DNA from: Puccinia triticina
Lineage: Eukaryota > Basidiomycota > Pucciniomycetes > Pucciniales > Pucciniaceae
Direction of reading: 5' to 3'
NCBI RefSeq assembly: GCF_026914185.1
Contig: NC_070559.1
Span: 3,880,001 to 3,944,000, forward strand
Length of the DNA stretch: 64,000 nt
In this document: piece after piece, positions 6,350 to 14,924 of the stretch
How the letters are laid out: each line of letters begins with the position of its first letter
Numbering within the stretch: position 1 is the stretch's first letter
Notes under the pieces: model-generated
What the model was told of the DNA's origin: nothing
Database searches by the model: none
What the model saw: only the letters and a program-made list of their open reading frames with translations
Position numbers and translations under genes: made by a program

Positions 6350-6787
6350 TGCCAACGGTGGGCCGCTACGCTAAACTAGCGGTAGCGGCCGCTATCTGAT
6401 AGTGTAGTATCAGGTAATTTCCAGAGATATTTGGGAGTTTCAGTTGAAGCTGAAATAATCTAAATTACTGGAGAGTTCAGTGGTTTTTTCTGCCTTGAGA
6501 TTCATGGTAGTTTTAGCGTCAACTACAAGGCGTTAAACTGTTCCTTAGCGTAGAATTTTTTCGCTATCCAAATTTTCTTTCCATTTCAGCTCAGTTTTTT
6601 TCCTGCTACACTACGCTACACTTGCATACTTTACTCTGCTACACTTGCATACTTTACCCCGCTACACTGCAGACTGAACTACGCTATACTGACTATTGTA
6701 GTTGCTCTAACTTACCAATCTAAGACCCGCTACCTCGGATTCAGCGCACAATGTATCAGGTGCTGTGATCTCCGCAGCGGGCACATG

Positions 6788-6876
6788 CGGGTGATTAAGA
6801 ATCGGAATCGAACCCGCGTGTCTTCAAAAGGTTATCATGTCAGAATCACCCGTCCTGACTGCTATGCTATGTCAAC
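6788..6876 (-). other. tRNA-like segment with A and B boxes in hAT copy 1
   Basis: Read on the minus strand, TAGCATAGCAG resembles a Pol III A box, and GGTTCGATTCC about 60 nt further is a perfect B box. A 9-bp inverted pair, CGGGTGATT and AATCACCCG (6788-6796 and 6844-6852), could form a stem. No full cloverleaf folds: the T stem has only two good pairs and the outer ends do not match. It may be a decayed tRNA gene, a SINE head or a Pol III promoter. The same segment is in copy 2. Confidence 0.35.
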
Positions 6877-7766
6877 TTGCTTATCACTCCAGTCACTCAA
6901 TTACGAACCAATCGTCTACATGATTCATATCAGTAGTTGTGTTCTGTGGCTCAAATTGGGTATGTACGTTTGTACATGTGTAGATACATAATATTCCATT
7001 CCCACTTAGCCGCTGCGGGGAGGTCTGGCAGGGGGTTTCCAGCATGCGGTCCCTTGCGGGTTGCGCGTGGCTCAATGCACCACCACACCTTGGTTGACGC
7101 TGCGGAGGGCACCGCAATGCTCTCTCTTAGTCATCTGCTCACTATGGAGAGTCCTGGAAGTCAGGGAGTAACTTCACCAGACTCTTGTGTGTGGTTCGGG
7201 GGAGGATTGGTCCCCAATCCTTTGTGCTGCGCTCTTGTGGTTCTTCTCTTTTTTAAAGTCCCCTGGGAGTGGGGAATCGACAGGGAGAAGTTCCTGAGGG
7301 AGGAGAAGGCAGTGGACCGGATCCTCCCGGAGCAGAAAGTCCCCGGAGGGTGAGGGCAAAGGCGCTAGACCCCACGCGTGAGCGTGAGTGCCTAGTCCTC
7401 GTTTAGACTTGTGTAGGGCGGGTGGGCAGTCGCGAAAAGGCTTTGATCCAAGAGGGGTAGACTAGAAGGGACTCGGGAATGGGAGGCTCGGAGAGGAAAG
7501 AGCGGGCTCGAGGAGTCTCAGACCCCGAGAGTTCTGAGGGGATGCAGGCAACCTCCCCAGGTCCCTGTAAAGCCCTGTACGCCGCTATCTCCGCCGTCGC
7601 TACATGTACATGGCCGCACTACGTGCTTGTGGCTTGGCGTGTACAGGGAGGGGCTGGACAGTTCGATGGACTCCACCGACCTCCCGTGTAACAAGAACAA
7701 ACCAGGGGAGGCCCCTGAGGCTGACACACGAATGGAGTGAAAAAATAAGTGCGCAAAGCCAGGTTT

Positions 7767-10968: not shown

Positions 10969-13900
10969 ATGTCTAAGCAAACAACTCCAATCCCAACGTC
11001 AAACCAAGGAGGATATCAAAGTGATACAAGCCAGCAGTTAACACGTCGTTCCTCAAGAGTTACAACTCCTGTCCAGCGGTCTGGAATGGTCCGGCAATCC
11101 TCAGATTCACGTTGTTCAATCAACCAAATTGGTCCAAATATTCAGTCGAAAAAGCGAAAGGATCCTCAATCTGATTCCAAAGGTGGCTCCCCAAGTGCAC
11201 CTGTTTCTCGAAATAAAAAGGCCAAGACAACTACAAATAAAAATCCGGAAGCATCCCAGTCCTCCGTGAAAAGTACAGCCGAAACGTCTAAGAATAAGCA
11301 GCCGGTGATTGATCTTGCTCAAGACTCCAATGGCGAAAATTCTAAAGCTCGGAAGAAAGGAAGGGACAGCACCTATGACAAACCACTGCTGTTTTTTGGT
11401 GCTCCTTACCGTCTCCCAAACGATGTAAGTCCTTATTTAACATAAAAGGTTCAAAATTATATCTAATTATCATCATTTCCAGAGCGCCGATGAAGGACCA
11501 CAAACGTATGACTGCTTGTGGTGTAAGAAGCCTATCCGAGTCTCCCGGGGTACCTTGTCGAATCTAAAAACCCACTGTGACAGATCTTCTCAAGAAGGAA
11601 GGTGCCCAGTTGGATGTCGAAATCGCCATAAAGCAATTGCTGATGGAGATAAGCTTCCACCAACAGTGGATGAGTTACGGATACAGCACAAAAACAAAAG
11701 GAAAACTGGAAAGATTACCAACCATTTTGCTCGAGTAGAAAAATTCAATAATGTTACGCTCAACCAGATCATTACAATGTGGCTTGTTCGTCAAGCACTC
11801 CCTTGGAATCGTGTCGAAGACACATATCTCCGTGCCGCATTCAACTACTGTGAAGCATCGGCGATCTTGTTCAAGCGCAAGTGGGCAGCTACTTCGGCAA
11901 GAGAGTTATACTTGGAATTACAAGATTCTATGTTGAACCGCTTGAAAGTGCGTATTTTATTCAAAGTTTTCCCTTTTCAAGTTGGGATTGTGTATTGAAT
12001 CTTTTTGTGATAAATTACTAGGCTTCCAATAGCAAGTTCAATCTGGTACATGATGTATGGACAACCAAAGGCAACCGCCATGGTTTTATTGGTGCTTCTG
12101 TTTCATTTATCGACAATCAGTGGAATTATGTAGTACTCCATTTGAGTATGAAATTAGTTGCCTGGCATCATAAGGGAAGCTTGTTGGCCGAACCAATTGT
12201 CAACATCTTGAAAAAGCACAATCTTCAGAATAAAATAAGTTCTTTTCAACAGTTTTCTGCTGACGTATAAATGCAAAAAAAAACTAATTTATCTTCTTTG
12301 CATTAATTTACATGCTTTGCCAGACTACAGATTCAGGATCAAACAATAATACCATGGCCGAAAAGATGCACAGTAAATTGCGCCTCATAGGGAGCGATCT
12401 TGAATGGGATTATGCAACGATGCATATCAAATGCTTTTGTCATAAGATGGCGTTGGTGGTCAATGCGGGTTTGTGGGAGTTGGGTATTGAAGCTCCACCT
12501 CCACCAAAAGTCAAGAAAGCGTTCCTTGGTTCTTTTCCCTTTCCCGATATAATGGAGAAAATAGCGGAAGAAGATGAAGAAAACGCCAACGATGAGAATA
12601 AGGTGGTCGACAGCGAATCCGATGGAGAAAACAATCCAAAGGAGCTTGACGAATACGAGGAAGATATGGTTGATGAAGACGATGAGCCAGATGAGCAAGA
12701 GGAAGAAGAACAGACCGATCCAAAGTATATGTCAAGAAATAAAAATACAAAATCAGCCGCTAATCAAAACAAATCTAACGAGTTGAACGAATTAACCAAG
12801 GCGGTGAGAATACTTTTCAATTTTATGTATAAAAAAAACTGTACTGATTTTATTTTTGATACTAGTTGGATTTTGTGATACTGAAAATAACTGGCTCTAG
12901 CGCATGGAGGCAGGAATTTGAGCGACGTGCTGCTGGAAAAGGATTGCAAACTCTGATTGCTGGTTATGGGATTCGTTGGAATATCAAGTATGAAAGTAGA
13001 AGGCGTGCATATGAAGCAAGAGATGTATGTCATAAAACTCAGACAGATTTGAATACTTTATTCACATATTATTTTGCAGGTTATTGATGAAATGCTCCGT
13101 GCCAAGTATGTCAAATTTCAAGAGAAAATTGCCCGAGAAAGCCATAAAGACAATCGCAAAAAGTATGGTCACTTCAACGAGATACAATTTGCCAAAAAGG
13201 AGTGGCTGCTGATTGCTCAATTAAATGACGAGTTAGAAGTGAGAAATTTTTCAACTCTTATCCAATTTACTTAGTTTGTTTTGTTGATGTTATTTTTTTT
13301 CAGCCTTTTGACCGTCTTACAAAGATGATGGAAGGTGATGGTCCTACCGGTCCTTATGTTCTTCCAAACTATTTTCAAACCATTTCTGATTTGAAGAACA
13401 AGGATGAGCGATGTGGGCGAGATGATGCATTGCATCCAATGTACATCAAGATGATTGAAAAATTAAAGGTTTACAAAGACGAGGCACTAGGATGTGAAAC
13501 TTTGGTAATGGCGACTCTCCTTCACCCTAGTTTTCGGTTAAAATTATTATCCAAGTGCTGGCCGGAAAAAAGCGGGGAGGCTCAAGCTTTGTTGGAGCGA
13601 CACTTTGCGGCGAGGGAAGCTTTGTTAAAAAGAGAAAGTGACGACATTGAGGTTTTGGACGAAGATAAAGAAAAGCCCAAGGAAGTTGTTAACAAAAATA
13701 TCTTTGACGAATTCAATTCTACTGCGGCGGCTGCAGAAAGCAAGGAACTCGAGCTCTACCTCAAGAACATGGATTGTTTTGCAGCCCCAAATTCCAAGGA
13801 TCCCGTGAGTGCTTTGATATGGTGGAAGGTATGTTTCTATTTGAATTTACTTGATTTCAAAGTTTTACGACTCATGAAATTCCATATGTGACTTTCAGGA

Positions 13901-14162
13901 TCATTCAAGCACGTTCCCTGTCCTATCATCGTTAGCAAAGGACTACCTAGGTTGTTCTGCATCATCTTGCGCGGCCAAGCGTACATTTTCTTCGGCTGCC
14001 GATGTCTGCACCAGTGGTCGGGGAAGATTGATACCACGAACGATAGAACAATGTGTCAGTAGTCATATGTGGCTCAAAGCGGGATTGAAAATCACTGGAA
14101 AATTTGAAAAGGCGCAAAACATTGTCACGGCTTTCACCAACCATTTTGATAAAGATCTATAG
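10969..14162 (+). CDS. hAT transposase with BED zinc finger, 8 exons (copy 1)
   Basis: Exons by my reading: 10969-11424, 11483-11947, 12022-12264, 12324-12803, 12866-13024, 13080-13238, 13304-13828 and 13899-14162; stop TAG at 14160. All seven introns are phase 0, and the 916-aa frame has no stop. Residues 1-152 are low-complexity, basic and Ser/Thr-rich with an NLS-like SKKRK. Exon 2 opens with CLWCKK...HC...CPVGC, a BED-type zinc-binding pattern for DNA binding. Exon 3 has VHDVWTTKGNRHGF, the first catalytic Asp region; exons 3-4 join to FSAD-TTDSGSNNNTM, the usual hAT block. An acidic Glu/Asp stretch lies near the middle. Exons 7-8 give LIWWK-DHSSTFPVLSSLA, then YLGCSASSCAAKRTFSSA and RLIPRTIEQCV, the C-terminal hAT dimerisation domain. 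The enzyme would act in the nucleus on the element ends. It appears intact and may be active. Confidence 0.92.
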
Positions 14163-14924
14163 AAAGCAAGTAAATGAATTTTTCATTTTGTTTTTGCTCA
14201 ATTAATCAAAAAAATAAATAAACATGTGCTTCCTATTCCTAATTTCTTTCCCATCTCAAAAAATACACGATATCACACATTCCCTCAAAATCTATCACAT
14301 ATACACGACTTAGATTACCAAGTAGAAAAAATATTGAATACAACAACTATACGCCTTTGGCTTTATCAAATAAAGTTATTCAACTTTCTCTGTCAAGTTC
14401 TTGACACTACATCTCCCCCATGACAGAACCCAGTGAACTGATGCAAAAACTCCACTGAATTGCGCTACACTTCCGCTAAACTGTGCTAAAACTCAGCTAA
14501 ACTATGCTACACATGAGCTAAACTGACGCTAACTTGGGTGCTACATTAATAACTACTGTAGCTGAAAAAAACTACACCGTTTTTTAGTGTAGCTGATGAT
14601 TGTGCTACACTGAAAGGTAGCGTAGCTGATGATTGCGCTACACTGAAAGGTAGTGTAGCTGATGATTGCGCTACACTGAAAAGTAGTGCAGCTGATACCT
14701 ACGCTACGCTGACTAAACAGCATCTATCGATGAAAGATGTTAGCGTTAGTTCTCTTATTTAGGTCTAAACTAACGCTACGCTACCAGTTTTTTTTTAAAT
14801 AATTTATTTTGTTAGTTTTTAGTTGGCTAAAATTGGCGCTACAGGTAACTTTTGTGTAGATTAGCGTAAAAATACTACACTAAACTACGCTAAAAACTAA
14901 AAGTAGTGTAGCGGCCCACCGTTG
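14163..14924. repeat. Right subterminal repeat array of hAT copy 1
   Basis: From about 14460 the sequence is a dense array of variants of GCTACACT, CGCTAAACT and GTAGCTGATGATTGCGC in both orientations; three near-perfect ~33-nt direct units lie at about 14595-14695. Such arrays are typical transposase binding zones in hAT elements. The 304 bp at 14169-14472 (AT-rich 3' flank of the transposase) are missing in copy 2. Confidence 0.75.

What the first reader, a model, noticed from the sequence alone, without database searches (positions are those of the whole stretch)
6353..14924. A hAT transposon carries a TET/JBP-like DNA dioxygenase as cargo
Seen: between matched hAT ends and a 7-bp duplication lie two same-strand genes, a BED/hAT transposase and a 2OG-Fe(II) oxygenase with HxD, distal His and Arg motifs of the Tet-like family. 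Known: fungal TET/JBP expansions have been linked to KDZ-type transposons. Inference: a hAT lineage has picked up its own TET gene, perhaps to remove host cytosine methylation from its promoters or ends. That the whole unit moved together is shown by the second copy.
Basis: partly seen in the sequence, partly recalled or inferred. Interest (0 to 1): 0.88.

Follow-up and report, generated by a model that had tools for sequence, protein, structure and literature searches.

The report
Rust hAT transposon carrying TET gene
This is a jumping gene of a wheat rust fungus that carries, besides the enzyme that moves it, a gene for an enzyme expected to alter methylated DNA; such elements were described in 2025, but this enzyme also ends in a membrane-anchor-like tail that the searches made here did not find reported.

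Summary
Window 6353-14924 is a full-length hAT element (17-bp inverted ends, 7-bp target duplication) with a Tet-like dioxygenase gene (PF20515, E 4.9e-70) upstream of a hAT transposase on the same strand. Copy 2 (31705-39972) has its own 7-bp duplication, and its empty target site lies in the window (47631-47637). The genome matches Puccinia triticina PtA15. The kind is already in print: Kojima 2025 (PMC12730594) named TET+ hAT7 elements in six Puccinia species, P. triticina included.

Added here: (1) 12 of 16 hAT7-lineage transposase places have a listed Tet-like match within 10 kb, against 2 of 150 other hAT matches (chance 3.7). (2) TET dN/dS is 0.11-0.15. (3) TET+ copies still suffer TCG C-to-T hypermutation, with no clear reduction. 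(4) Both window copies share an in-frame TGA in TET, so the latest jump did not need TET in cis. (5) A 331-bp MITE shares the element's ends and 7-bp duplications. (6) hAT7-linked TETs end in a hydrophobic, tail-anchor-like segment: 5 of 5 read, against 0 of 32 other P. triticina TETs sampled; no report found in the searches made.

The parts
6353..14924 (+). TET+ hAT7 element, copy 1 (8572 bp)
   Evidence: TIR and 7-bp TSD CCTCTGC
6346..6352 (.). target-site duplication of copy 1, left (CCTCTGC)
14925..14931 (.). target-site duplication of copy 1, right (CCTCTGC)
6353..6369 (+). left terminal inverted repeat CAACGGTGGGCCGCTAC
14908..14924 (-). right terminal inverted repeat
8566..8919 (+). upstream part of the TET frame, with a basic NLS-like stretch, ending at the in-frame TGA 8917-8919
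   Evidence: NLS-like is my own reading
8920..9837 (+). Tet-like 2OG-Fe(II) dioxygenase, catalytic part (305 aa), PF20515 over residues 25-233
   Evidence: fold nearest CMD1, TET2, NgTET1
9400..9408 (+). HxD motif (H161, D163)
9601..9603 (+). distal His (H228)
   Evidence: role assigned from the family pattern (recalled)
9640..9642 (+). Arg of FTRLGMS (R241), putative 2OG ligand
   Evidence: role assigned from the family pattern (recalled)
9775..9831 (+). C-terminal hydrophobic, tail-anchor-like segment (mean hydropathy 2.13 over 19 residues)
10969..14162 (+). hAT transposase, putative exons 10969-11424, 11483-11947, 12022-12237 (donor uncertain), 12324-12803, 12914-13024, 13080-13238, 13304-13828, 13899-14162; about 890 aa
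   Evidence: Dimer_Tnp_hAT E 2.8e-15
31705..39972 (+). copy 2 of the element, TSD CTCGAAT at 31698-31704 and 39973-39979, 304-bp deletion after the transposase stop
34272..35189 (+). TET catalytic ORF of copy 2
   Evidence: offset 25352 from copy 1
36321..39514 (+). transposase gene of copy 2
   Evidence: offset 25352 from copy 1
46932..47736 (+). unfilled copy of copy 2's target; site CTCGAAT at 47631-47637
   Evidence: 98.9% over 707 bp and 100% over 106 bp

Best explanation
Shown: a TET+ hAT7 DNA transposon of Puccinia triticina moves as one unit, with 7-bp target duplications, and it encodes a hAT transposase. Shown: its Tet-like gene has been kept under purifying selection while hAT7 families diverged. 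Inferred: the enzyme oxidises 5-methylcytosine on silenced element DNA, acting in trans on its own and related copies (and their MITEs), so that promoters and ends can be used. Inferred: the C-terminal hydrophobic tail anchors the enzyme in a membrane, most likely the nuclear envelope or ER-continuous membrane. It does not noticeably shield copies from the TCG hypermutation of this genome.
Confidence: 0.7

Rival explanations
1. The TET gene is a passive passenger, captured by chance and carried without use.
For: Copies with broken or lost TET have moved or persisted: the window copies with TGA, C11 with a 6049-bp internal deletion; a hAT7 element without detectable TET exists.
Against: dN/dS 0.11 to 0.15 across families; catalytic residues conserved; kept near 12 of 16 lineage places; published in 20 TET+ hAT families.
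Confidence: 0.1
2. TET serves mainly to stop C-to-T hypermutation of the element's own DNA, as Kojima 2025 speculates.
For: Rust repeats show TCG hypermutation (stated in PMC12730594; seen here), and TET would remove the methylated base. The pooled CpG to non-CpG C-to-T ratio is lower in TET+ (35) than in TET- (116), Fisher p 0.03.
Against: The pooled difference rests on 2 non-CpG events in the TET- set, and family 3 (TET+) is at 170. TCG rate over the A/T-site rate is in the same range in both sets, though on few A/T changes (27, 18, 6 against 4, 4). TET genes themselves carry in-frame TGA in several hAT7 copies.
Confidence: 0.12
3. The enzyme makes another base modification (CMD1-like, or on 6mA) or acts on RNA.
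Confidence: 0.15
4. The two genes lie side by side by chance, or the repeat is an assembly artefact.
For: None found.
Against: Five copies on four chromosomes with distinct duplications, five of family 2, and an empty site.
Confidence: 0.01

Closest known systems
TET+ hAT7 transposons of Puccinia (Kojima 2025, PMC12730594)
   Same: hAT transposase, 7-bp duplications, PU-type TET; TET upstream of the transposase on the same strand is stated there for three hAT7 families; P. triticina is among the hosts.
   Different: Nothing in kind. I could not check whether this very family is in their Data S1. The words transmembrane, tail-anchor, hydrophobic and MITE do not occur in the main text, and no copy-to-copy mutation test is in the sections I read.
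TET+ Kyakuja/Dileera/Zisupton (KDZ) transposons
   Same: DNA transposon with its own TET/JBP gene.
   Different: Other transposase superfamily; the Dileera of P. graminis makes 8-bp duplications.
CcTET, NgTET1, TET2, CMD1
   Same: 2OG-Fe(II) fold and catalytic motif; CMD1, TET2 and NgTET1 are the nearest solved folds.
   Different: 7 to 16% identity in the structure alignments; a C-terminal hydrophobic tail is not known to me in them (recalled).
Ac/Tam3-type hAT elements
   Same: hAT dimerisation domain and RNase-H-like region; hAT-type ends (the ends consensus is recalled).
   Different: 7-bp, not 8-bp, duplications; carries TET.

Membership tests
hAT superfamily | hAT C-terminal dimerisation domain | tested here: met
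   PF05699 56.3 bits against 21.4
hAT superfamily | 8-bp target duplication | tested here: not met
   7 bp in 12 of 12 elements read; hAT5, hAT6 and hAT7 are described exceptions
hAT superfamily | BED zinc finger at the N-terminus | tested here: inconclusive
   10.9 bits against 20.6; absent from the E<=1 list of the spliced protein
TET+ hAT7 (Kojima 2025) | 7-bp duplication, hAT transposase, TET within the ends | tested here: met
TET+ hAT7 (Kojima 2025) | place in the hAT7 clade of a transposase tree | not tested
   reference sequences are in a supplement I could not open
TET/JBP dioxygenases | Tet-like 2OG-Fe(II) profile | tested here: met
   PF20515 E 4.9e-70
TET/JBP dioxygenases | HxD, distal His, Arg | tested here: met
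   conserved in the consensus of the 27-sequence alignment
TET/JBP dioxygenases | fold | tested here: met
   CMD1, TET2, NgTET1 lead the list; CcTET ties with AlkB; model pLDDT 75
TET/JBP dioxygenases | oxidation of 5mC (or T) in DNA | not testable with these tools
   needs enzyme assays
KDZ transposons | KDZ transposase domain | tested here: not met
   no KDZ family in Pfam scans of exons or spliced protein
tail-anchored membrane proteins | hydrophobic segment of about 18 residues at the C-terminus | tested here: met
   hydropathy only: 33 of 35 with mean 1.5 or more over 18 residues and at most one charge; no dedicated predictor at hand
tail-anchored membrane proteins | insertion in a membrane | not testable with these tools
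   needs localisation

The most novel reading that the evidence does not exclude
hAT7-borne TETs of rusts are tail-anchored DNA dioxygenases: a basic, nuclear-targeting N-terminus, a TET core, and a conserved C-terminal membrane segment that would hold the enzyme at the inner nuclear membrane, where silenced chromatin lies. A transposon would thus place a demethylating enzyme at the site of silencing, in trans for a whole family and its MITEs.
Probability: 0.4. Interest if true: 0.72.

Novelty: already known. Interest (0 to 1): 0.45.

Why it matters
Transposons that carry a DNA-demethylation enzyme would be a clear case of anti-silencing by a mobile element, and this one genome holds at least 152 Tet-like matches, many of them broken. 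The work here turns a printed speculation (protection from hypermutation) into a test, with no clear effect so far. It shows that the gene is not needed in cis. It also points to a feature that I did not find reported, a membrane-anchor-like tail seen in the hAT7-linked enzymes and in none of the 32 other P. triticina TETs sampled, which makes the question of where such enzymes act testable.

Tried and rejected
tRNA and Rfam scans of the window for cargo RNA: nothing. Sequence search of solved structures with the TET alignment: one chance hit at E 0.62. The DNA_methylase search found a single exon match, too little to name the host enzyme. The best TET homologue is from P. striiformis (82% over 93%). 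The best P. striiformis transposase matches are 44 to 52% over most of the length, and up to 64% over short pieces. This may mean that the TET moved between elements, but the P. striiformis locus could not be read; left open. Whether copy C3 shares the TGA with copies 1 and 2 by descent or by repeated CpG mutation could not be settled; only copies 1 and 2 are used in the argument. dN/dS for the transposase exon 2 pairs was out of frame and discarded; the exon 7 value was likewise out of frame and was replaced. In one search the seven minus-strand loci were read in the wrong frame and were redone. A neighbouring hAT and TET at C16:1607375 and 1609476 fits the 1.8 expected within 5 kb. From, 44 match rows were merged to 16 places; 23 rows under 400 bp were dropped. 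In one search copy 2 was left out of family 1 (near-identical to copy 1), family 3 was a 2.6-kb core, and the MITE row (3 of 198 CpG and 2 of 345 non-CpG sites changed) was not pooled. Coverage limits: 150 of 252 PF20515 candidates and 150 of 993 hAT candidates were scored by the tool; it reported 152 PF20515 matches, of which 150 were listed and used. C-terminal tails were read for 32 of about 136 listed TET matches that are not hAT7-linked. Paper searches on the subject: 0 papers; 0 papers.
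Full report
What is there. The element at 6353-14924 has perfect 17-bp inverted ends and a 7-bp duplication. Inside lie, on the plus strand, a Tet-like dioxygenase frame (8566-9837) and a hAT transposase gene (10969-14162; eight putative exons, all open). The dioxygenase core passes PF20515 with E 4.9e-70 and the transposase passes Dimer_Tnp_hAT. The TET frame is interrupted by an in-frame TGA at 8917-8919 in both window copies, upstream of the catalytic core. The C18 copy reads open over 361 codons.

Mobility. Copy 2 (31705-39972) carries its own duplication CTCGAAT, and an unfilled relative of its target sits at 46932-47736, with the site at 47631-47637. 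Five full-ended near-identical copies exist on chromosomes C2 (two), C3, C11 and C18. Their duplications are CCTCTGC, CTCGAAT, CCCGCAC, GATCTGT and CCACAAT. Four of the five have TET sequence: unbroken in its catalytic core in copies 1, 2 and C18, split by a 916-bp insertion in C3, lost with 6049 bp in C11. C18 in turn has lost 676 bp of transposase, and the transposase frames of C3 are shortened. So in this haplotype none of the five shows both genes whole. Partial relics (C13:3648044-3649675, C7:1774131-1780763, C15:3104377 and 3118028, C2:965463, C5:578369) are left out of these counts. Copies 1 and 2 differ by three substitutions and the 304-bp deletion, so the TGA is older than their separation. 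A unit with TET broken in cis has jumped, which means that TET is supplied in trans or is not needed for the jump itself.

Host. This identification is by length match.

Lineage. A second family of five copies (L017, L018, L019, L020, L022; about 8.2 kb, 98.5 to 99.6% alike) has TET in 5 of 5 (two with an in-frame TGA) and five different 7-bp duplications. L021 is a further TET+ element with the duplication AATTGAG. A third family (L023/L024, L025, L026) has TET in two of three copies; none was found at the C4 copy. C8:190623-198284 is a hAT7-like element of 7.7 kb with the duplication CTCCAGG and no TET found; its two ends match at only 12 of 17 positions. Of 16 hAT7-lineage transposase places, 12 have a listed PF20515 match within 10 kb (0.39 expected) and 10 within 5 kb; of 150 other hAT matches, 2 do within 10 kb (3.66 expected).

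Already in print. Kojima 2025 (PMC12730594; I saw the abstract, section 3.4, part 1 of 2 of the discussion, and passages) describes 20 TET+ hAT families from six Puccinia species including P. triticina. It names them hAT7 for their 7-bp duplications and suggests that TET counters silencing or hypermutation. The finding is therefore a member of a published kind. I could not open the supplement to see whether this very family is listed.

Hypermutation test. Among copies of three TET+ families, C-to-T changes hit 106 of 1294 TCG sites, 49 of 3825 other CG sites and 23 of 26959 non-CpG sites. In two hAT families with no listed TET match within 10 kb, the counts are 42 of 785, 22 of 1651 and 2 of 8809. 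The CpG to non-CpG ratio is lower in the pooled TET+ set (35 against 116, Fisher p 0.03), which would favour protection. But this hangs on two events in the TET-less set, and single TET+ families range from 22 to 170. With A/T-site changes as a clock (27, 18 and 6 changes in TET+ families, 4 and 4 in TET-less ones), TCG decay is 58, 81 and 101-fold in TET+ families and 85 and 73-fold in TET-less ones (from the same counts). I see no clear protection; a two-fold effect would not be visible.

MITEs. Forty matches to the first 548 bp were scored out of 104 candidates, 32 of them to the first 55-58 bp only. Three that I read are 331-bp elements, 97.9 to 99.1% alike, sharing at least the first 21 bp with the element and with 7-bp duplications in 3 of 3. 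Cross-mobilisation by the hAT7 transposase is inferred.

The tail. The TET of the window ends ALLATTLLYFILFSFISMFP. All five hAT7-linked sequences read (family 1, its C5 relic, families 2 and 3, L021; not fully independent) end in such a segment. Of 61 database homologues, 34 hold the conserved H-F/L/Y motif near the end, and 30 of these have at least 18 residues after it. Of the 35 sequences so gathered (5 own, 30 database), 33 have a mean hydropathy of 1.5 or more over 18 residues with at most one charge; the exceptions are P0028 (charged tail) and P0005 (1.47). Against the rule, P0013, P0021, P0041 and P0042 end without such a segment, and P0020, P0026, P0049 and P0055 stop too soon after the motif to tell. 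None of 32 other P. triticina TETs sampled has it; theirs are mostly polar or charged, several with KKRK-like ends, and some (such as L065) stop early. In a single sequence the T-rich DNA could give such a tail. The argument rests on its conservation between diverged sequences, on dN/dS of 0.06 to 0.32 in the last 24 codons (18 to 24 codons per pair), and on its absence from the others sampled. The model puts it in a long helix (267-303), mostly beyond the part aligned to other dioxygenases, where rows end at residues 248 to 290. No mention was found in the main text of PMC12730594, and the paper search for tail-anchored with TET dioxygenase found 0 papers; one search was seen as a listing only.

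Mechanism. Shown: moves as a unit; TET conserved; not needed in cis. Published for a relative: CG methylation in P. graminis, high in centromeres (PMC8444563, passages seen). Inferred: oxidation of 5mC in trans to reopen silenced copies, from a membrane-anchored position. Rivals are given with their evidence.

Noticed in passing
L038:137-467, L039:117-447, L040:1953-2283: 331-bp MITE family with the element's ends and 7-bp duplications; 32 of 40 scored left-end matches genome-wide are of this short kind.
   Followed up: partly
L011/L012 (C3 copy): A 916-bp insertion in the TET gene, seemingly with a 4-bp duplication; nature not determined.
   Followed up: no
window 28172-29123 and 49181-50394: Tandem arrays with units of about 41-45 bp around CCGGTCATTGAGAG-like motifs.
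   Followed up: no
window 3720-4961: Frame with kinesin-like text (IPYRDSKLTRIL, recognised from memory), probably a host gene next to copy 1.
   Followed up: no
whole genome: In-frame stops inside TET and copia matches look to be mostly TGA (not counted), as expected from CpG decay of CGA codons.
   Followed up: no
P0001 against window TET: P. striiformis TET 82% identical while its best full-length transposase matches are 44-52%: possible exchange of TET between elements.
   Followed up: partly
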